From: Dehalococcoidia bacterium
Lineage (GTDB): Bacteria; Chloroflexota; Dehalococcoidia; GIF9; AB-539-J10
DNA: 38,480 nucleotides
Direction of reading: 5' to 3'
Assembly: GCA_030611085.1 (NCBI GenBank)
Contig: JAUWQI010000012.1
Location: 1 to 38,480 of the forward strand
Shown here one piece after another: positions 4,328-35,956 of this stretch (the stretch's first letter is position 1; every line of letters begins with the position of its first letter). Position numbers and translations under genes: made by a program. The notes under the pieces were generated by a model. The model was not told where the DNA came from, did no database searches, and was given only the letters and a program-made list of their open reading frames with translations.

Positions 4328-4355
4328 TTGACAAAAAAGGGAATTAGTTTATAAT
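4328..4355 (+). promoter_or_regulatory. sigma-70-type promoter of the DtxR-family gene
   Basis: Perfect TTGACA (4328-4333) and perfect TATAAT (4350-4355) separated by 16 bases. This is the best promoter match noticed in the window. The expected start of transcription falls within the operator that follows at 4359-4374. Confidence 0.8.
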
Positions 4356-4358
4356 TTT

Positions 4359-4393
4359 GTTAGATATTTTTAACAATTATAGCCATGGCTAAC
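4359..4393 (+). promoter_or_regulatory. tandem candidate DtxR-family operators at the dtxR promoter
   Basis: Box 1 at 4359-4374 reads GTTAG-ATATTT-TTAAC, an inverted repeat with a 6-base spacer, flanked by TTTT and AATT. Box 2 at 4378-4393 reads TATAG-CCATGG-CTAAC; its right arm is perfect and its left arm weak. The box centres are 19 bases apart, close to two helical turns. Their position just after the -10 element fits repression and autoregulation. The same GTTAG-N6-CTAAC geometry recurs at 4930 and 10288. Confidence 0.6.
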
Positions 4394-4406
4394 AATTAGT
4401 ATTAGG

Positions 4407-4901
4407 ATGAAAGAAAAAGTGCCAAAAGGGTATAGCCCCAGTATGGAAGATTATCTCGAGGCGATAGCTATGCTTTGTGGGGGGAGGAGGGCAGCGAGAG
4501 TAAGTGAGATCAGCCGAAGGTTGAGAGTTAAGATGCCCAGCGTTACCTCTGCCGTGAAAAAACTTTCAGAGCAAGGACTCGTGGTGCATGAAAGGTATGG
4601 CTATGTGGAGCTTACCGCTGAAGGTGATAGGGTTGCCGAGGATGTGATTCGCCGTCACAAGGCATTAAGCCGCTTTTTTGCCGAAGCATTGGATATTAAC
4701 CAGGAAGTGGCAGAGGAAGATGCTTGCAAGATGGAGCATGTCATCAGCCCGCTTAGCTTAGAAAGGGTGATTAAGTTCATAGAGTTTATAGAGGCATGTC
4801 CATTGGGAGAAACTAATTTCCCAAATAGGTATAAATACTATCTGGAGCATGGGGAACTTCCTGAAGAGTGTCTGGAGAGGGGGTTGAGGGAGAAAGAGTG
4901 A
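4407..4901 (+). CDS. DtxR/MntR-family metal-dependent transcriptional repressor
   Basis: 164 residues. The N-terminal winged helix (about 10-70) has the family signature MEDYLEAIAML, then VSEISRRLRVKMPSVTSAVKKL (recognition helix) and the wing GLVVHERYGYVELT. The dimerisation and metal domain (about 75-145) has RRHKALSRFF and EEDACKMEHVIS, where C, E and H are the usual metal ligands. There is no C-terminal SH3/FeoA-like domain, so it is of the short MntR/IdeR-lite type. The metal cannot be read from sequence; the neighbouring feo genes and flavodoxin favour Fe(II). It sits behind a consensus promoter overlapped by palindromic operators, which suggests autoregulation. No clear Shine-Dalgarno precedes the ATG. 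Confidence 0.9.
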   Translation: MKEKVPKGYSPSMEDYLEAIAMLCGGRRAARVSEISRRLRVKMPSVTSAVKKLSEQGLVVHERYGYVELTAEGDRVAEDVIRRHKALSRFFAEALDINQEVAEEDACKMEHVISPLSLERVIKFIEFIEACPLGETNFPNRYKYYLEHGELPEECLERGLREKE

Positions 4902-4908
4902 AGGAGTC

Positions 4909-4945
4909 AAAAAAATTTAGTGTCATAAAGTTAGCTAAAACTAAC
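4909..4945 (+). promoter_or_regulatory. candidate iron-repressor operator in front of the feo block
   Basis: GTTAG-CTAAAA-CTAAC at 4930-4945, followed by AAAA and preceded, 21 bases earlier, by AAAAAAATTTA (4909-4919). The site before the flavodoxin (10267-10303) has the same 11-mer at the same distance. It lies between the repressor gene and the truncated methyltransferase/feo genes. A clear -35/-10 pair was not found here, so the position of the promoter is open. Confidence 0.6.
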
Positions 4946-4971
4946 AAAATTTAATTAAGTTAGGAGAAAAA

Positions 4972-5244
4972 TTGGAAAAGCCTATGCCTAGCAAAATGAA
5001 TCATTTAACCAAGTTTACTGATTTCTCGGCTTCGTTCTATGACCTGATTTTTAGGATGTTTTGGTTGGGGCATGAAAGTGATTTCAGGGAAATGGTCGTT
5101 GATTTTATGGGTTTAACTGGCGATGAATCGGTATTAGATGTGGGTTGTGGGACAGGGATGCTGACTTTTATGCTCGCCGACAAGATGAATGGCAAGGGAA
5201 GCATGATTATTTCAGCAGGGAAATTGATGAAAGAAAGGAGGTGA
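4972..5244 (+). pseudogene. truncated SAM-dependent methyltransferase (N-terminal part only)
   Basis: 90 residues from TTG 4972 (TAGGAG at 4961-4966) or ATG 4984. The sequence YDLIFRMFWLGHESDF and SVLDVGCGTGMLTFMLADKM is the N-terminal helix and SAM-binding motif I of a class I methyltransferase. After MNGKGSM the similarity stops, and the frame ends in IISAGKLMKERR, with no motif II or later. Complete relatives are 200 or more residues. It is probably the remnant of a deletion; a small SAM-binding protein is less likely. It is the first reading frame after the operator at 4930. Confidence 0.7.
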
Positions 5245-5247
5245 TAT

Positions 5248-5280
5248 ATGCCGATTAAAGCTTTGTATAAGACAAGCTAG
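5248..5280 (+). other. 10-codon ORF with a consensus ribosome binding site
   Basis: ATG 5248 to TAG 5278-5280 encodes MPIKALYKTS. It is preceded by AAAGGAGG at 5234-5241, six bases before the ATG. The feoA that follows has its own AGGGGG site. Either this is the left-over start of a deleted gene, as the truncated methyltransferase just upstream suggests, or it is a leader peptide. Nothing else supports expression. Confidence 0.3.
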
Positions 5281-5291
5281 GCAGGGGGTAA

Positions 5292-5513
5292 ATGGCAATG
5301 ATGCTAAGTCAAGTTGGGATTGGTGAAATGGCGAGGATTACAGTGGTTGAAGGGGGGCGAGGGTTAAGGCAGAAGTTGTATTTGAGAGGTCTATTTGAGG
5401 GCAAGGTGGTAAGGGTAATATCCAATTATGGGCCGGTGACGGTGGAGGTTGATAGAAGCGTTGTTGCTATTGGTCGGGGGATGGCACAAAAAATTGTAGT
5501 GGAGAGGAGTTAA
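5292..5513 (+). CDS. feoA: FeoA-domain protein (ferrous iron transport), first copy
   Basis: 73 residues, one SH3-like FeoA barrel: VVEGGRGLRQKLYLRGLFEGKVVRV, then the GPVTVEVDRSVVAIGRGMAQKI tail typical of the family. FeoA is a small cytosolic partner that acts on the FeoB ferrous iron channel. The start ATG 5292 has AGGGGG at 5283-5288. The stop is two bases before the next feoA. It lies downstream of the candidate operator at 4930. Confidence 0.92.
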   Translation: MAMMLSQVGIGEMARITVVEGGRGLRQKLYLRGLFEGKVVRVISNYGPVTVEVDRSVVAIGRGMAQKIVVERS

Positions 5514-5515
5514 TT

Positions 5516-5743
5516 ATGGAAAAGAAATTGTCCCAGATGAAGTATGAAGAGAAAGGCAGGATTAAGAAAATTGATAAGAGTCTAAGAGCACAGGTAGCAG
5601 GTATGGGGATTAGGGAAGGGAAGGATGTTGAGATGATGACCAGGCAGCCAATAAAGGGCCCTGTAGTGGTGAACGTAGATAGGTCTAATACATCTATCGG
5701 CCTTGGGCTAGCGGACAAAATCATCGTGGAGGTGGAGAGATGA
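5516..5743 (+). CDS. feoA: FeoA-domain protein, second copy
   Basis: 75 residues with the same fold and order of motifs as the preceding gene: LSQMKYEEKGRIKKI, AQVAGMGIREGKDVEMM, GPVVVNVDRSNTSIGLGLADKI. The two are clearly diverged, so this is not a recent duplication. It has a GGAGAGGAG ribosome site at the end of the first feoA. The final ATGA overlaps the start of the FeoB G-protein by 4 bases, so coupled translation is likely. Paired FeoA proteins may act as a hetero-oligomer on FeoB (inference). Confidence 0.92.
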   Translation: MEKKLSQMKYEEKGRIKKIDKSLRAQVAGMGIREGKDVEMMTRQPIKGPVVVNVDRSNTSIGLGLADKIIVEVER

Positions 5744-6282
5744 GAAAAGTATTGCTGATGGGTCAAGCCAATGTAGGCAAATCCGTGCTTTTTAATCGTC
5801 TGGCTGGAGCGCATGTTACGGAGTCAAATTATTCCGGAACAACAGTCGATTTCGCCAAAGGGCGTATGCGACTTGACCACGAGGATGTTGAAATCATAGA
5901 TGTTCCTGGCACCTTTTCCTTGGAGCCCAAAGATAGAGCAGAAGAGGTAGCAGCAAGCATGCTCAAAGAGGAGAAAGGTGCTTTAGTCGTATGTGTTATC
6001 GATTCTTCCAAGATAGAGCGGGGCCTCTACCTAACTTTGGAGGTCATAGAAAAGGGCTATCCAGTGGTAATCGCTTTAAATATGTGGGATGTAGCTAAGG
6101 GTGGCAATATAAAGGTAGATGCCAAGAAATTGGAGCAAATCCTCGGCGTACCCGTGGTGCCTACGGTAGCCACGAGAGGAGAGGGGCTGAAGGAATTGGC
6201 ATTGAGGATGAAGAACGCAGTACCTGCCGATGTAGAAAAAATCATGAAAAATGTGGGGGTGAAAAGTGGAACTCACAATTGA
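5740..6282 (+). CDS. feoB: FeoB N-terminal GTPase as a separate polypeptide
   Basis: 180 residues covering only the G domain of FeoB. G1 GQANVGKS (residues 8-15), G2 YSGTT, G3 DVPGTF (switch II), G4 NMWD and the G5 region ATRGEG are all present, so GTP binding should be intact. Normal FeoB proteins (about 600-770 residues) carry this domain, a helical GDI domain and the membrane permease on one chain. Here the frame ends after the G domain and the permease starts in another frame, overlapping by 17 bases. Most of the GDI domain seems missing. Confidence 0.93.
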   Translation: MRKVLLMGQANVGKSVLFNRLAGAHVTESNYSGTTVDFAKGRMRLDHEDVEIIDVPGTFSLEPKDRAEEVAASMLKEEKGALVVCVIDSSKIERGLYLTLEVIEKGYPVVIALNMWDVAKGGNIKVDAKKLEQILGVPVVPTVATRGEGLKELALRMKNAVPADVEKIMKNVGVKSGTHN

Positions 6283-7519
6283 CCAGAGATGGGATTTAGT
6301 AGAGAGAATATCCAAGGAAACTGTAGAAGTTGGTGTCTATGAGCCTTCCTTGAAGGATGCCCTTGCTGATGTTACCGTCAGGCCAGCCACAGGGATACCA
6401 TTCGCCATTGCAGTTATTTATGGTTTCTGGGCATTCTTCTGCGAGTTTGCCGGGACGCTGTTTACCGATGGCTTCTTTTGCAAGATTTTCGATGGTCATT
6501 GGTTGCCCTGGTTGCAAGGTGTCTTTGCCGGAACGCCCGCCTGGGTGTTTAACATTTTTGTGGGAGACCCATTAGCCGACAATTGCTTTGAAGCCTTTGG
6601 TGTGCTCAGTAGCGGGATTTTCCTTGCCATAGGTGTGGTTCTACCGGCAATAGTGGCATTTTATCTCATATTTGCCATTCTAGAAGATGTAGGGTACATG
6701 CCCAGGCTAGCAGTTCTCGTGGATACGCTACTGCATAAAATAGGTTTGCATGGCTATGCTATCGTGCCCACCATTCTTTCCTTGGGATGCAATGTTCCTG
6801 GTGTGACGGCCGTGCGACCCCTGGAAACGAGAAAGCAAAGGTTTTTGGCTATAGTTTTGTTGAGTGTTTTCGTTCCCTGTGGTGCTCAGATTGGCATCAT
6901 GGAAGGAATGATTCCCGGCCTGATAGGTTGGGTTTTCCTCGCCTTGGTTATAGGTTATTTTGGTGTCGGCTGGGTAATCAACAAGATTGTGCCCGGCGAA
7001 TCGCCAGAGATTCTAATGGACGTGCCACCATATCAAATGCCAACAGCGAGAAATATATGGGCGAAGCTCTGGACCAGGACATCAAAGTTCCTCACAGTGG
7101 CAGTTCCCTTTGTCCTGCTTGGCTGCGTCATCGTGGCTGTTTTATATATAACCGGAGCTATGGATGCCATAGCAAGTGGATTAAGCCCGGTGATAACTGG
7201 CGTGTTTGGGCTACCGCAGGATACGGCAGCGGCTATGATTGCAGGATTTCTGAGGAAGGATTTGGCTGTGGGAACAATCGGCATGCTGGCGGCAGGGGGG
7301 ATGACAATAACCGTTTTTCAAGTATTTACCGCTGTGGTTCTGCTTAGCATATACTTCCCTTGCTTAGCCACATTTGCCCTGATGATAAAAGAATTGAATT
7401 GGAAGGAGACTCTAGGAGCTCTAGCTACTCTTATAGTGATGGTATTCGTTTATGGGGCAATACTTCACCTAATAGGATTGTCTGGAATAGGGAGCAGCGT
7501 TTGGGTTCCGCTGGAGTAA
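6266..7519 (+). CDS. feoB: FeoB membrane permease as a separate polypeptide
   Basis: 417 residues starting at GTG 6266 with GGGGGTG just upstream. It opens with the amphipathic helix normally linking GDI to the membrane part (DQRWDLVERIS), followed by about eight hydrophobic segments. The FeoB permease signature GCNVPGVTAVRPLETRKQRF and the cysteine-containing FVPCGAQI are present, as is the second Gate-domain repeat with FLRKDLAVGTIGML. It transports Fe(II) across the cytoplasmic membrane. Because it retains a clean start and ribosome site, the split looks like a real two-protein arrangement rather than a recent frameshift. A sequencing error cannot be fully excluded. Confidence 0.93.
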   Translation: MELTIDQRWDLVERISKETVEVGVYEPSLKDALADVTVRPATGIPFAIAVIYGFWAFFCEFAGTLFTDGFFCKIFDGHWLPWLQGVFAGTPAWVFNIFVGDPLADNCFEAFGVLSSGIFLAIGVVLPAIVAFYLIFAILEDVGYMPRLAVLVDTLLHKIGLHGYAIVPTILSLGCNVPGVTAVRPLETRKQRFLAIVLLSVFVPCGAQIGIMEGMIPGLIGWVFLALVIGYFGVGWVINKIVPGESPEILMDVPPYQMPTARNIWAKLWTRTSKFLTVAVPFVLLGCVIVAVLYITGAMDAIASGLSPVITGVFGLPQDTAAAMIAGFLRKDLAVGTIGMLAAGGMTITVFQVFTAVVLLSIYFPCLATFALMIKELNWKETLGALATLIVMVFVYGAILHLIGLSGIGSSVWVPLE

Positions 7520-7523
7520 GTGA

Positions 7524-7543
7524 AGTTGCCTGATTTATCAGGC
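7524..7543 (+). repeat. short hairpin repeat (AGTTGCC family), copy 1
   Basis: AGTTGCCTGATTTATCAGGC contains the perfect hairpin GCCTGA-TTTA-TCAGGC (7528-7543). The related hairpin at 21019-21034 has a different stem but the same architecture. Part of this copy is found inverted at 29333-29349. It lies between the FeoB permease and the next gene and lacks a T-run, so it is not a standard terminator. Confidence 0.5.
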
Positions 7544-7566
7544 TTAATAAAAGGAGGTGACATAAA

Positions 7567-8028
7567 ATGAGTAATAGAGCAGCAAAGTTTGGCAGCATAT
7601 ATTTTGGCGTCTTTGGCGCCATCGTATTGCTCTTCGGCATAGCAGGATTTGTAGTGATGGGGGTGTATGGAATGGAAGGTGTTACCTGGGGACCTTTGGA
7701 GATGTCGGGCATGTTCCTGATATGGGAAGCAATTATCCTTATCTCTGCTGGCGCTATGTACCTATCCAGCGTGTCCAAATTCGGGGAAGTTCGCCAGCTA
7801 GCAAAATCTGTAGCAGCTAGCATAATGATATGGATTGTTGCTGGAATGGCAATCTGGGCAATGATAGCCGGTTCCATTCCGGGAGGAGAAGAAGGTCCTT
7901 GGTTTAATCCTCCAGTGGATTTCATAGCCACTTATGCTCCGCCATATATGCCGGCAATCTTTTTGTTACCCTTCTCGCTGGCGATAATCTATTTTATTCG
8001 CAGCAGAAGAAGGAGTGTGACGGCATGA
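7567..8028 (+). CDS. small integral membrane protein of the feo operon, unknown function
   Basis: 153 residues with four predicted membrane helices (about 9-32, 45-68, 83-104 and 124-146), a short acidic loop (GGEEGPWF) and a basic tail RSRRRS. I do not recognise the family. It starts at ATG 7567 behind a consensus AAAGGAGGTGA and lies 47 bases after the FeoB permease in the same direction, so it is probably co-transcribed with feo. It could be an accessory subunit of the split FeoB (inference from position only). Confidence 0.75.
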   Translation: MSNRAAKFGSIYFGVFGAIVLLFGIAGFVVMGVYGMEGVTWGPLEMSGMFLIWEAIILISAGAMYLSSVSKFGEVRQLAKSVAASIMIWIVAGMAIWAMIAGSIPGGEEGPWFNPPVDFIATYAPPYMPAIFLLPFSLAIIYFIRSRRRSVTA

Positions 8029-8043
8029 TATAAGAAACTAAAA

Positions 8044-8116
8044 GCACCAGGGAGCTTAACACTTTCCAAATTTGGACTTTGGACGGTCGCTTTCGGAGGT
8101 TTTTCATCCCTAGTGC
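8044..8116 (+). other. possible structured RNA or hairpin element downstream of the feo operon
   Basis: GCACCAGGGA (8044-8053) pairs with TCCCTAGTGC (8107-8116) apart from one G-T pair. Inside lie the perfect palindrome TCCAAATTTGGA (8065-8076) and GGTCGCTTTCGG. No protein-coding frame is apparent. It could be a structured 3' region or small RNA. No known riboswitch was recognised. Confidence 0.35.
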
Positions 8117-8173
8117 ATTGTAAGTATAACACGAATTTGGATTTTGAAAAGCAAAATAAAGCTGCCGTTTAGT

Positions 8174-8230
8174 TGTCACCCTGAGCGATAGCGAAGGGTC
8201 TCTAGATTCTTCACTTTGCTCAGGATGACA
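8174..8230. repeat. dispersed palindromic repeat, copy 2
   Basis: Compact 57-base inverted repeat: TGTCACCCTGAGCGATAGCG at the left and GCTCAGGATGACA at the right. It is the clearest full-length copy in the window, in the gap between the 4-TM protein and the triple-FeoA gene. Confidence 0.85.
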
Positions 8231-8286
8231 GGCAGGGTTGTTAAATAAACTTAGTCAAGGTCAAAATGATGAAAGGAGGGCAAGAA

Positions 8287-8997
8287 ATGAAGTTGTTAAC
8301 ACAGGTGGAGCCTGAAACCAAGGTGGTGGTTAAAAAAGTTGAAGGAGGTTCAGAACTCAAAACATCTCTTGGTGATCTAGGAATTGAAGAAGGGGTGGAG
8401 CTTACTTTGCTTGCTTCAGAACCGGTGCATGCCCACATAGGGCCTATTTCCTTAAAGGTAGCTGGTAAGGAGATAATCGTGAGCCAGGGGTGGGCAGACA
8501 AGATATTTGTGGAAAAAGAGGGAATGCTGCTTCCCCTCTTAAGGCTAGAAAAAGGAGATAAGGCAGTGGTTAAATCTATTGAAGCCGGGGGAGCCTTTAA
8601 GGAATGGATTTCCGAGCTGGGCATCAATGAAGGTGGTGAAGTGGAGTTTTTAACGCATATCCCTGATGAGACATTGGTTCTCAAATTAGCTGAGAAGGAG
8701 GTAAAAATGGGGCCAGGCAAGATGTCGAGGGTGTGGGTGGAAGTCGAGGGGAAGGTTATGCAAATCAATTACCTGGAGCAAGGCAAGAAAGCTAAAGTAA
8801 CCAAGGTAACTGGCGGTACCCAGCATAAGCAAGAGATGGAGGAAGCGGGAATTAAGGAAGGGATAGAGGTAACTTTACTTGGAAGGGAAAAGGGTAAAGG
8901 GCTACCCAAAAGAAAAGGCAACTATGTGCTGGCGAAAGTAGGGGAGCAAATGATAACCATTGGTCGTGGCATGGCGGAAAAGGTTTTGGTGGAGTAG
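8287..8997 (+). CDS. protein of three tandem FeoA domains
   Basis: 236 residues made of three consecutive FeoA-type SH3-like barrels, roughly residues 1-76, 78-152 and 154-236. Each has the pattern KVxGG..K..L..LGIxEGxEVxLL, followed by G(K/E)xxxI(S/G)xGxAxKIxVE. The third is closest to canonical FeoA (MITIGRGMAEKVLVE). There is no membrane segment. ATG 8287 is chosen because AGGAGG (8274-8279) lies 7 bases upstream; the ATG at 8266 has no such site. By family it should act around FeoB or bind metal. The three covalently joined copies mimic a FeoA trimer, which is an inference. Confidence 0.85.
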   Translation: MKLLTQVEPETKVVVKKVEGGSELKTSLGDLGIEEGVELTLLASEPVHAHIGPISLKVAGKEIIVSQGWADKIFVEKEGMLLPLLRLEKGDKAVVKSIEAGGAFKEWISELGINEGGEVEFLTHIPDETLVLKLAEKEVKMGPGKMSRVWVEVEGKVMQINYLEQGKKAKVTKVTGGTQHKQEMEEAGIKEGIEVTLLGREKGKGLPKRKGNYVLAKVGEQMITIGRGMAEKVLVE

Positions 8998-9010
8998 TAA
9001 GGAGTTAGAT

Positions 9011-10312
9011 ATGTCCTCACAAAAAAGAAGACTATGGGAATTTTATGGCCCTCTAGTCTGCCGTCTCATCGGGCTCACCTTCGATGAAGACCAACTGAAC
9101 AAAGTTGTAAAGAAGCTGAGACCTAAGGATGTCCAACCACTGCTGACATCCCCGGAAGAACACGCGGTGTTGGTTGAAACCTGCGCCAATCAGAATGAGG
9201 TTTCCAAGTATGTAGAAAAGATACTGGAAAGGCAGTTTGAGCTATACCGAAAGTTAGTTGACGGAATAGGTCCAGAGGACATTTGTCAATTTATCGAAGG
9301 CGAAAGGGAAATTAACGGACTCAAAAATGTCCCTCTTCCTGCCCTAATTTGGTTTACAGTGCGAGGGCAGCATGAAAGGATAAATGAAATTGAAGCCAGA
9401 CTTTTCTGCATTATTCACCACAAGGAACACCAAGCTTTAAGGTTCTATGACGCCCTTTCCAGGGAGCTATCTAATGGCAAGGTGGAGAATGTGCTGGAGG
9501 AATTGAGGGGGGCATTGAAATCGAAGGAAGAACTTCAAAAGAGATGTGAAAGGTCGGAGCGAAAAAGAGAGCAGTTAAAATTGGAAGTAGAAGCGATTAA
9601 GAAAGATAAATCGCAAGTCGCTCTGGCTTTGGCTGAGCAGGAACAGCTAAATGAGAGGCTAAAGAATGACTTGGAGAGGTTAGGTGGGCAGTCAGCTTTC
9701 GACCAAATCGAAAGCCTGAAGAAAGAAGTAGAGCTTTTGAATCAGGAAATCAAAACTCTGACTCAAGAATTGCTCCACCAGGAATATTATGGAGCAAGCT
9801 TCATGATTGATGAGTCTGCAACAGAAGTTTCCTGTCATTCTGAGCTTCCTCCATTGTCATTGCGAGCGGAGCGAAGCAATCCAAGAGACCCTTTGCTATC
9901 GCTCAGGGATGACATAGATAAAGAGCAAGATGGCCAGCTATCTCTTAAAGGTATAAAGGTGGCTTTTGTGGGAGGACTACAATCGCTTGTGCCTCATTAT
10001 CGCCGAATGGTAGAAAACTTGGGCGGCGTTTGTGAGTATCGTGAAGGGTGCCGAGGGAGGAAAGAGGCGGAAAATCTTGTGGGCGGTGCCGATATAGTGT
10101 TTTGTCCCATAGATATGAACAGCCACGGTTGCTACCGCTGTATCAAAAGAGCCTGTAAGTTAACAGGCAAACCTTGCTGTTTCCTCCGCAACTCCGGCTT
10201 GAGGATGTATGGAAGGGGGCTGGTTGATTTTGCCAAGAGCTTAAGTGAGCAAAGAAATAGTGAAATAAAAAAATTTACGCTAATTAAGTTAGTTAGGACT
10301 AACAAAACCTAG
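9011..10312 (+). CDS. DUF2325-domain protein with coiled coil, carrying a repeat insertion
   Basis: 433 residues. The N-terminal part (1-160) is of unknown type. A long charged coiled coil spans about 155-265. A segment at about 275-302 is the translation of a dispersed repeat. The C-terminal DUF2325 domain spans about 315-420: KVAFVGGLQSLVPHYRRMVE, then DIVFCPIDMNSHGCYRCIKR and GKPCCFLRNSGL. DUF2325 is a Rossmann-like domain with conserved Cys/His, often encoded near metal transport genes; its biochemical role is not established. The start ATG 9011 follows TAAGGAG. The last ten codons coincide with the candidate operator at 10288, so gene and regulatory site overlap. Confidence 0.82.
   Translation: MSSQKRRLWEFYGPLVCRLIGLTFDEDQLNKVVKKLRPKDVQPLLTSPEEHAVLVETCANQNEVSKYVEKILERQFELYRKLVDGIGPEDICQFIEGEREINGLKNVPLPALIWFTVRGQHERINEIEARLFCIIHHKEHQALRFYDALSRELSNGKVENVLEELRGALKSKEELQKRCERSERKREQLKLEVEAIKKDKSQVALALAEQEQLNERLKNDLERLGGQSAFDQIESLKKEVELLNQEIKTLTQELLHQEYYGASFMIDESATEVSCHSELPPLSLRAERSNPRDPLLSLRDDIDKEQDGQLSLKGIKVAFVGGLQSLVPHYRRMVENLGGVCEYREGCRGRKEAENLVGGADIVFCPIDMNSHGCYRCIKRACKLTGKPCCFLRNSGLRMYGRGLVDFAKSLSEQRNSEIKKFTLIKLVRTNKT
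9833..9914. repeat. dispersed palindromic repeat inside a coding region, copy 3
   Basis: TGTCATTCTGAGC at the left and GCTCAGGGATGACA at the right enclose a second repeat type, TTGCGAGCGGAGCGAAGCAA, related to the copy near 22790. The reading frame of the DUF2325 gene stays open through it and gives residues such as SLRAERSNPRD. Confidence 0.85.
10267..10303 (+). promoter_or_regulatory. candidate iron-repressor operator in front of flavodoxin
   Basis: GTTAG-TTAGGA-CTAAC at 10288-10303, followed by AAAA and preceded 21 bases earlier by AAAAAAATTTA (10267-10277), as at 4909-4945. It overlaps the final codons of the DUF2325 gene and lies 49 bases before the flavodoxin start. Iron repression of flavodoxin is common in bacteria. 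Confidence 0.6.
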
Positions 10313-10351: not shown

Positions 10352-10804
10352 ATGTCAAGAGCTATTGTGATTTATGGCTCAAACACTGGGAATGCAGAGG
10401 CATTGGCTCAGAGCGTGGCTTCGGGGTTTGAAGAAGGCGGCGTGGAAGTCACTATAAAAGATGTAGCTACGGCTAAGGGCGATGACCTGGCCAGCTATGA
10501 TTTGGTTGTGCTTGGTAGCTCTACTTGGGATGGGTTACACGATGATTTTGAGGATTTCTACCAAAAAATGGCTGGTTTGTCCCTGGCAGGGAAGAAGGCA
10601 GCAGTATTCGGTCCGGGTGATAGTGCGAACTATCCCGACACATTCTGCGAGTCCGTAGACATACTCGAAGAACGGCTCAAACAATGTGGGGCTGATATGG
10701 TAACAGCGGCGTTGAAAATTGATAGGCCTATGGGAGAGGAAATGGATGAGGCTGCCAAGGAAGAAGCTAAGACATGGGCGGTAAACATAGCAAGAGCGCT
10801 TTAG
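10352..10804 (+). CDS. flavodoxin (short-chain type)
   Basis: 150 residues, the length of Desulfovibrio-type flavodoxins. The FMN phosphate loop is SNTGNAE (residues 10-16). The aromatic loop near residues 58-66 reads SSTWDGLHD, with a Trp typical of FMN stacking. The third loop FGPGDSANYPDTFC contains the second FMN-contacting aromatic. It is a low-potential one-electron carrier that can substitute for ferredoxin. The candidate iron-repressor operator directly upstream supports expression on iron shortage. The ribosome site is modest (AGAGGT). Confidence 0.95.
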   Translation: MSRAIVIYGSNTGNAEALAQSVASGFEEGGVEVTIKDVATAKGDDLASYDLVVLGSSTWDGLHDDFEDFYQKMAGLSLAGKKAAVFGPGDSANYPDTFCESVDILEERLKQCGADMVTAALKIDRPMGEEMDEAAKEEAKTWAVNIARAL

Positions 10805-10838: not shown

Positions 10839-11240
10839 ATGAGGAAGAGGAACTACCAAAAATTTATCATTGATTTTTGTCAGTATCAATTATTTGCGCA
10901 GCATATCTACGAATATAAAAAGAGGTTAAGAGACCTAGTTCTCTTTACCACAAGGATATCAAATAAGAGTGCGATTGAAGAGAGATTAAGGAAGGAAGGC
11001 ATAGATTATTTTATCCAGGAGGTCAATGCAAACAAAGTAAACATCTTTTTTGGTGATAGAAGATGTGTAGATGTCATAAGGGAAATGAGATTTAACTCAT
11101 TATCAGATTTAAGCGATGAGGAGGATTTTATCATTGGCATAATGTTGGGTTATGACAGATTGAAACAGTGTGAGCGCTATCTTAAAAGAAAACATAGCAT
11201 GGAGTGGCTTTGGGTGGGGAGCGTGAAAGCTGGTACCTAG
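10839..11240 (+). CDS. DUF2023 family protein
   Basis: 133 residues. The body matches DUF2023: HIYEYKKRLRDLVLFTT, KEGIDYFIQEVNANKVNIFFG and DFIIGIMLGYDRLKQCERYL. This small uncharacterised family is commonly found beside flavodoxin genes. The last 17 residues (RKHSMEWLW and onward) go beyond the usual end of the family and may reflect a lost stop. It follows the flavodoxin by 34 bases and is probably in the same transcript, pointing to a role tied to flavodoxin or iron limitation (inference). Confidence 0.85.
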   Translation: MRKRNYQKFIIDFCQYQLFAQHIYEYKKRLRDLVLFTTRISNKSAIEERLRKEGIDYFIQEVNANKVNIFFGDRRCVDVIREMRFNSLSDLSDEEDFIIGIMLGYDRLKQCERYLKRKHSMEWLWVGSVKAGT

Positions 11241-35119: not shown

Positions 35120-35956
35120 TTACAATTCAAGGCTCTTCCCTGCCAGGGTAAATAGCTGTTCCACTGATTCTCGGGGCAAAGCTATCTCTGGTAGCATATC
35201 CATCGATTCACCATCTAATCCATGAAAATCGCTGCCGCCAGTGGGAATGAGTTCATATTTGTTAGCTATTACCAACAATCTGCTAATTATAGCAGAAGAA
35301 TAATGGGAATAAAAGACTTCCAGCCCTATAAGCCCAACATTTTTAAGCTCATCAAGAAGCTCATTCAAATTGCTAAGTCCGGCAGGGTGAGCTAGAACAG
35401 GTAAGCCTTGAGTCTCTTTTATCAGCTTGACTGCCTCTGCAGGTGTTAGCCTTGTATATTCCACATAAGCCGGTTTACCTTGACCTATATATTTATCAAA
35501 GGCGTCTTTGATAGAAGATACATAGCCTTGTTCAAGCAAAGCTTGTGCTATATGAGGACGCCCTATAGAGGCATCCTGAGCTAATTCCTGCACACGATGC
35601 CAAGCAACAGCTATGTCTAAAGTGCGAAGTTTAGTAACCATCCTTTCTGCCCTCTTCTGCCGTAGGTCGTGTAGCCATTGCAGAGTAGAGCGTAACTTAG
35701 GATTAGTGTAATCAATAAAGTAACCCAAGATGTGGATTGTGTTAGGCGGAATATCAGCATTAATCTCAATGCCAGGGATAACTGTAAGGTTTGGGAAAGC
35801 TTTGGCTGTAGCTAAAGCCAAAGGTATACCGTTTACTGAATCATGGTCTGTAATAGCGATAAGACTGAACCCGAGTCTAGCTGTTGAATAGACAATTTCT
35901 TGCGGGGTAAGCTTCCCGTCGGAAGCAGTGGTGTGGAGATGAAGATCGACCTTCAT
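35120..35956 (-). CDS. PHP-domain phosphoesterase
   Basis: 278 residues. The metal-binding PHP pattern is complete: DLHLHTTASDGKL, AITDHDSVNGI, IPGIEINAD, HILGYF, LAHPAG and GGSDFHG. Relatives include RNase AM / 3',5'-nucleoside bisphosphate phosphatases (YciV/TrpH type), which trim nucleotides or 5' ends of RNA. That role would fit the RNase Y gene two genes upstream, but specificity cannot be read directly. It lies 2 bases after the YmdB-like gene in one transcript. Confidence 0.9.
   Translation of the reverse strand: MKVDLHLHTTASDGKLTPQEIVYSTARLGFSLIAITDHDSVNGIPLALATAKAFPNLTVIPGIEINADIPPNTIHILGYFIDYTNPKLRSTLQWLHDLRQKRAERMVTKLRTLDIAVAWHRVQELAQDASIGRPHIAQALLEQGYVSSIKDAFDKYIGQGKPAYVEYTRLTPAEAVKLIKETQGLPVLAHPAGLSNLNELLDELKNVGLIGLEVFYSHYSSAIISRLLVIANKYELIPTGGSDFHGLDGESMDMLPEIALPRESVEQLFTLAGKSLEL

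What the first reader, a model, noticed from the sequence alone, without database searches (positions are those of the whole stretch)
4328..10303. Iron regulon defined by a phased GTTAG-N6-(C/T)TAAC operator
Three sites with identical 16-base geometry stand before the DtxR-family gene (4359), the feo block (4930) and flavodoxin (10288). The last two also share AAAAAAATTTA exactly 21 bases upstream of the box and AAAA directly downstream. The dtxR site overlaps the expected transcription start of a consensus promoter and has a second weaker box 19 bases further on. The motif resembles but differs from the classical DtxR/IdeR box, whose GTTAG and CTAAC arms are nearly adjacent. It may represent an undescribed operator for this lineage.
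Basis: partly seen in the sequence, partly recalled or inferred. Interest (0 to 1): 0.72.

Follow-up and report, generated by a model that had tools for sequence, protein, structure and literature searches.

The report
Iron-repressor operator boxes in Dehalococcoidia
A bacterium of the Dehalococcoidia uses a 16-letter DNA switch before its iron-sensing regulator, its iron-uptake genes and a flavodoxin gene; the switch is real and conserved across many microbes, but it is one half of the long-known diphtheria-repressor-type switch rather than a new kind.

Summary
GTTAG-N6-YTAAC occurs at exactly three places in the host genome (1.16 Mb, 83% complete), all in this window: before dtxR (4359), the feo operon (4930) and flavodoxin (10288). 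In the same family, 55 of 68 exact GTTAGN6CTAAC sites in 52 genomes lie before dtxR or feo genes. Genomes with a dtxR gene have the box at the iron locus (26 of 30); genomes without it do not (0 of 7). The box also precedes dtxR genes of other phyla, with a sharp peak at a 6-bp gap (18 of 71 loci; at most 3 at any other gap).

The claim of an unusual, lineage-specific geometry is wrong. The classical 19-bp box TTAGGTTAGSCTAACCTAA is two overlapping TTAG-N6-CTAA units, each gripped by one dimer; this operator is one such unit.

Best model: an SH3-less, MntR-shaped, Cys-liganded repressor binds as one dimer. At dtxR a weak second box 19 bp on probably takes a second dimer, matching B. subtilis MntR. 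The A6-7T3 tract upstream of the feo and flavodoxin boxes is a real, phased promoter module of unknown role.

A new member of a known kind; Fe(II) rather than Mn(II) sensing is inferred.

The parts
4328..4355 (+). dtxR promoter, TTGACA-16-TATAAT
   Evidence: 12 of 12 match; the same -35/-10 arrangement just before the box recurs in dtxR promoters of relatives
4359..4374 (.). operator 1 (dtxR), GTTAGATATTTTTAAC; dtxR-type flanks TTTT..AATT
   Evidence: orthologous sites in relatives
4378..4393 (.). weaker second box TATAGCCATGGCTAAC, offset 19 bp from operator 1
   Evidence: 19-bp offset enriched in dtxR-upstream regions
4407..4901 (+). DtxR-family repressor, 164 aa, two domains and no SH3 domain; ligand positions D15, E18, H84, C107, E110, H111
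   Evidence: Pfam Fe_dep_repress and Fe_dep_repr_C; alignment to MntR; C107 invariant; MntR-like model
4909..4919 (+). A7T3A tract, 21 bp upstream of the feo box; phased promoter module
   Evidence: positions -20..-12 nearly all A/T, TTT at -14..-12 in 18-19 of 19 family feo boxes
4930..4945 (.). operator 2 (feo operon), GTTAGCTAAAACTAAC
   Evidence: matching box between dtxR and feoA in relatives
4972..5244 (+). truncated methyltransferase-like ORF between operator 2 and feoA
   Evidence: UbiE-type match over the N-terminal part only; fragments at the same place in L043, L046, L048
5292..5743 (+). two feoA genes (5292-5513, 5516-5743)
   Evidence: Pfam FeoA
5740..7519 (+). feoB split into a G-domain gene (5740-6282) and a membrane gene (6266-7519)
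   Evidence: Pfam FeoB_N; Gate and FeoB_C
7567..8028 (+). 153-aa hydrophobic protein of unknown family, probably in the feo operon
   Evidence: no Pfam or NCBIfam match; ortholog at the same place in L034
8266..8997 (+). protein with three FeoA domains
   Evidence: Pfam FeoA, 3 stretches
10267..10277 (+). A7T3A tract, 21 bp upstream of the flavodoxin box
10288..10303 (.). operator 3 (flavodoxin), GTTAGTTAGGACTAAC; overlaps the 3' end of the DUF2325 ORF
10352..10804 (+). short-chain flavodoxin
   Evidence: Pfam Flavodoxin_1; NCBIfam TIGR01753, 122.6 bits against a cut-off of 123
10839..11240 (+). DUF2023 protein, possibly co-transcribed with flavodoxin
   Evidence: Pfam DUF2023, E=5.8e-40

Best explanation
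The protein at 4407 is the metal-activated repressor of a small ferrous-iron regulon, and GTTAG-N6-YTAAC is its operator. With enough intracellular metal (most likely Fe(II)), one dimer grips the two TTAG half-sites in successive major grooves and blocks RNA polymerase at its own promoter, the feo operon and the flavodoxin gene. When iron falls, uptake and the iron-free electron carrier are switched on. At the dtxR promoter a weak second box 19 bp on probably recruits a second dimer cooperatively. Shown here: the sites, their conservation and co-occurrence with the regulator gene, geometry equal to one dimer unit of the DtxR/IdeR box, overlap of the dtxR box with the promoter, and the predicted MntR-like fold. 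Inferred: binding itself, Fe(II) as co-repressor, direction of regulation and cooperativity.
For: Only three genome sites, all before iron genes. 55 of 68 exact sites in 52 family genomes are at dtxR/feo loci (my tally). Box at the iron locus in 26 of 30 dtxR+ genomes and 0 of 7 dtxR- genomes, Fisher p=3e-5. Outside the class the box before dtxR (at least 9 of 10 arm bases) is found in 18 of 71 loci against 0.29 expected, and peaks only at gap 6. The one-dimer site TTAGGNNNNCCTAA binds a single IdeR dimer, Kd about 78 nM (PMC8464063). Aligned to MntR, the protein keeps the other ligands but has Cys at the E99 position; Cys there raises Fe selectivity in IdeR (PMC10317159). The conserved T at dyad position -7 and the invariant Y64 (MntR Tyr57) agree with the MntR-DNA structure (PMC11275975). 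A 19-bp second box is enriched: 14 regions at 6 or more of 10 arm bases against 2.4 expected; 4 at 8 or more against 0.02. MntR dimers on mneP sit on 18-bp sites with 1 bp between them.
Against: No binding or expression data. The metal site keeps MntR's Asp where IdeR has Met10, so Mn(II) is possible. A review states that SH3-less family members reported so far are not Fe-responsive in vivo (PMC7762939). dtxR-lacking relatives also seem to lack FeoB, so the co-occurrence cannot separate 'operator follows regulator' from 'operator follows feo'. Several of the -19 second boxes overlap the -10 element, and the relatives are not independent samples.
Confidence: 0.8

Rival explanations
1. The same operator and repressor, but Mn(II) (or Mn and Fe together) is the physiological signal, as in MntR, and feo is tuned to the Mn/Fe balance.
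For: Closest solved structures are MntR, by sequence and by fold; no SH3 domain; Asp at the D8 position; two Fur-family proteins in the genome could handle iron.
Against: Targets are FeoA/FeoB and flavodoxin, both tied to ferrous iron; Cys at the E99 position is invariant in the clade; MntR equivalog cut-offs are missed (85.5 against 138, 83.7 against 153).
Confidence: 0.2
2. A Fur-family protein, two of which the genome encodes, is the regulator that binds these boxes.
For: Two Fur-family genes in the host; Fur often controls feo and flavodoxin (general knowledge).
Against: Every genome searched for Fur has Fur-family genes, yet none of the 7 dtxR-less family genomes has the box at an iron locus; the sequence is a TTAG-N6-CTAA palindrome and not the AT-rich Fur box; it lies before dtxR itself in many phyla.
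Confidence: 0.03
3. An undescribed operator class with its own geometry, restricted to this lineage.
For: No held paper prints GTTAGN6CTAAC; flanks and inner C/G differ from the IdeR consensus.
Against: The spacing is that of one dimer on the classical box; found in many other phyla.
Confidence: 0.04
4. Chance pattern in AT-rich intergenic DNA.
For: Genome-wide counts equal the reversed-pattern control (68 against 76 in 52 genomes).
Against: Positions are not random: 55 of 68 at dtxR/feo loci, conserved in register in orthologous promoters.
Confidence: 0.01

Closest known systems
DtxR/IdeR box of Actinobacteria (TTAGGTTAGSCTAACCTAA) and its one-dimer half-site TTAGGNNNNCCTAA (PMC8464063)
   Same: TTAG-N6-CTAA spacing per dimer; palindrome; overlaps the transcription start of repressed genes; iron targets
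   Different: No overlapping second dimer site at +-5 bp; the first C of CCTAA is not conserved; extra conserved outer G/C and TT or AA flanks; regulator lacks the SH3 domain
MntR of Bacillus subtilis and the mneP array (PMC11275975)
   Same: Two-domain protein, best fold match; one dimer per site of about 18 bp; T at -7; 19-bp centre-to-centre tandem sites
   Different: Half-site sequence; Cys in place of Glu99; targets feo and flavodoxin instead of Mn transporters; the mneP array activates, here repression is expected
Archaeal DtxR-family regulators of feoAB (called FetR by Leyn and Rodionov 2015, PMC4285986; not held here, content recalled)
   Same: DtxR-family control of FeoAB through short palindromes
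   Different: Not compared directly; two Altiarchaeota loci here carry similar boxes near feo

Membership tests
DtxR superfamily (protein) | winged HTH plus metal-binding/dimerisation domain | tested here: met
   PF01325 E=2.9e-15 and PF02742 E=8.6e-21, both above cut-off; AF2 model with MntR as top PDB match and DtxR also matched
IdeR/DtxR proper (iron sensor) | C-terminal SH3-like domain | tested here: not met
   164 aa with only the two domains
IdeR/DtxR proper (iron sensor) | Met10 and Cys102 sulfur ligands | tested here: inconclusive
   Cys present and invariant (C107), Asp at the Met10 position (PMC10317159)
IdeR/DtxR proper (iron sensor) | full 19-bp two-dimer operator | tested here: not met
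   TTAG-N6-YTAA present once per site, no second copy at +-5 bp
One-dimer DtxR/IdeR half-site operator | TTAG-N6-CTAA spacing | tested here: met
   gap-6 peak
One-dimer DtxR/IdeR half-site operator | binding of exactly one dimer | not testable with these tools
   needs EMSA or mass photometry
MntR | NCBIfam MntR equivalog score | tested here: not met
   85.5 against 138 and 83.7 against 153
MntR | Glu99 ligand | tested here: not met
   C107 at that position, invariant in 27 sequences
MntR | Mn(II) response | not testable with these tools
   no metal data
Fur regulon | site present independently of dtxR | tested here: not met
   0 of 7 dtxR-less family genomes have the box at an iron locus, though Fur-family genes occur in all 37 genomes searched

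The most novel reading that the evidence does not exclude
A widespread clade of SH3-less, MntR-shaped repressors with a mixed Asp/Cys metal site senses Fe(II) in anaerobic bacteria and archaea and uses the single-dimer DtxR half-site as its normal operator, adding cooperative dimers at 19-bp steps at its own promoter. This would be the general case of which the actinobacterial two-dimer box is a compacted derivative, and would bear on what 'half sites' are for.
Probability: 0.4. Interest if true: 0.55.

Novelty: new member of a known kind. Interest (0 to 1): 0.36.

Why it matters
It defines a predicted iron regulon (dtxR, feo, flavodoxin) in uncultured Dehalococcoidia, where nothing on it was found in the papers held. 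It also bears on an open question in the IdeR field, whether one-dimer half-sites occur and matter in other genomes (PMC10317159): here they appear to be the standard operator across several phyla. The phased A/T tract and the 19-bp second box give concrete features to test.

Tried and rejected
Raw genome-wide counting of the pattern: at background, so useless alone; location is what matters. The one-mismatch site at 35259: inside a PHP-domain-like coding gene. Four further near-matches in the host: all inside genes. Orthologs of the flavodoxin promoter: no close flavodoxin ortholog in relatives (best 35% identity over most of the gene), so that site cannot be tested by orthology. dtxR-less relatives as a test of box loss at feo: their FeoB_N matches are at most 63 bits, often paired in one frame as in Der-type GTPases (172 bits for the window's FeoB_N), so they seem to have no feo. 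A conventional -35/-10 for the feo promoter: none found in the right place by eye. RNA element: no Rfam match in the window. Leyn and Rodionov 2015 is not held.
Full report
What was checked. The second box at dtxR is at 4378, 19 bases on. In the host genome (30 contigs, 1.16 Mb, 83% complete) the exact pattern occurs nowhere else.

Host. Relatives found by the regulator are Dehalococcoidia/Chloroflexota metagenome genomes (for example PCSL01000017.1, 73% identical), so the host is taken to be of that class (inference).

Conservation. The regulator is found in 30 of 37 genomes of the same family-level group. Upstream of dtxR, and in most also between dtxR and feoA, they carry the box. The matrix from 56 distinct sites is (A/T)TTGTTAG-nCnnGn-CTAACAA(A/T); these sites were chosen by the near-exact core, so only the flanks and the inner C/G are informative there. 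Of 68 exact GTTAGN6CTAAC places in 52 genomes, I count 55 at dtxR or feo loci (or the window's flavodoxin) and 13 elsewhere, several of them inside ORFs. At iron loci the exact box is present in 26 of 30 dtxR-bearing genomes and 0 of 7 without (p=3e-5), but the latter also appear to lack FeoB.

Beyond the class. Loci pulled by a regulator alignment include Nitrospirota, Omnitrophota, Deltaproteobacteria, Elusimicrobia, Bacillota, Spirochaetota and archaea. In 71 such upstream regions, 18 hold a site with at least 9 of 10 arm bases against 0.29 in shuffles, and 8 an exact one against 0; varying the gap from 0 to 12 gives 18 at gap 6 and at most 3 elsewhere. The operator therefore belongs to a broad clade of often feo-linked DtxR-family proteins and not to one lineage.

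What the box is. The classical 19-bp box contains TTAG-N6-CTAA twice, at positions 1 and 6. In crystals one IdeR dimer takes repeats 1 and 3, the other 2 and 4, and a DNA with only one such pair binds one dimer at about 78 nM (PMC8464063). The window's boxes are thus single-dimer sites; no second copy lies at +-5 bp.

The protein. It has 164 aa, the two DtxR-family domains and no SH3 domain; nearest solved structures are MntR by sequence and by fold of an AlphaFold2 model (mean pLDDT 85). Aligned to MntR (offset 7, then 8 after a one-residue gap), the ligands D8, E11, H77, E102 and H103 are kept and E99 is Cys (C107, invariant in 27 sequences). IdeR has Met10 and Cys102 where MntR has Asp and Glu, and the sulfur ligands favour Fe(II) (PMC10317159); this clade has one of each. 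In the recognition helix P44 aligns, by my reading of the known DtxR sequence, with DtxR Pro39, and S48 with Gln43, which in IdeR contacts the first C of CCTAA; that base is not conserved here. Y64, invariant, aligns with MntR Tyr57, which reaches the minor groove at positions 8-9, where this operator has conserved G and T or A. These matches are inference from alignment.

The 19-bp second box. In dtxR-upstream regions of all loci, 19 bp is the most frequent offset for a second box: 14 regions at 6 or more arm bases (null mean 2.4, maximum 7 in 300 shuffles), 4 at 8 or more (null 0.02, maximum 1) (a matrix-based scan gives the same peak). It occurs on both sides; some upstream ones coincide with the -10 element, and relatives are not independent. 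B. subtilis MntR binds the mneP control region as four cooperative dimers on 18-bp sites separated by 1 bp, i.e. every 19 bp. A cooperative second dimer is the simplest reading.

The A/T tract. At 19 distinct family feo boxes, positions -20 to -12 are nearly all A or T, with T at -14, -13 and -12 in 18, 18 and 19 of 19. dtxR boxes instead have TTGACA near -30 and TATAAT just before the box. The composite A/T tract plus box occurs 17 times in 52 genomes against 1 control match; by position and adjoining sequence I assign all but two to the dtxR-feoA gap, the exceptions being one dtxR promoter (G070) and the window's flavodoxin. In the host it occurs twice, feo and flavodoxin, with no control match. 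So flavodoxin carries the feo-type module, which supports its membership although close orthologs are missing in relatives. The role of the tract is open; an UP-like element beside a weak -35 is my guess, since no standard -35/-10 fits.

Verdict. A real, well-conserved operator and a small iron regulon; I put metal-dependent repression by the 4407 protein with iron as the likely signal at about 0.8, with Mn(II) as the main rival signal. The kind is known; use of the single-dimer site as the standard operator by an SH3-less, mixed-ligand regulator is the interesting part.

Noticed in passing
window 5740-7519: FeoB is encoded by two overlapping genes in different frames (G domain and membrane domain, 17-bp overlap); the same split is seen in L034 and L201.
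   Followed up: partly
window 8266-8997: One protein made of three FeoA domains, besides two single feoA genes in the same cluster.
   Followed up: no
window 4972-5244: Truncated methyltransferase-like ORF between the feo operator and feoA; similar fragments at the same place in L043, L046 and L048.
   Followed up: partly
L178 2501-2600: A duplicated dtxR promoter with a perfect box followed by a broken dtxR start, about 2 kb upstream of the intact dtxR.
   Followed up: partly
L201 2501-3485: A feo operon very similar to the window's, in a relative that also has the dtxR-linked feo; its box precedes a 307-aa protein with a signal-peptide-like start and no Pfam match.
   Followed up: partly
window 139, 8179, 9857-9908, 20908, 21803: Short REP-like repeats with a TCATTCTGAGCG(N)AGCGAAG core; one lies in frame inside the DUF2325 ORF.
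   Followed up: no
window 10839-11240: DUF2023 gene directly after flavodoxin, possibly in the same transcript.
   Followed up: no
feo and dtxR boxes of the family: Two operator flank types: dtxR boxes are TTGTTAG..., feo boxes are mostly AAGTTAG....
   Followed up: partly
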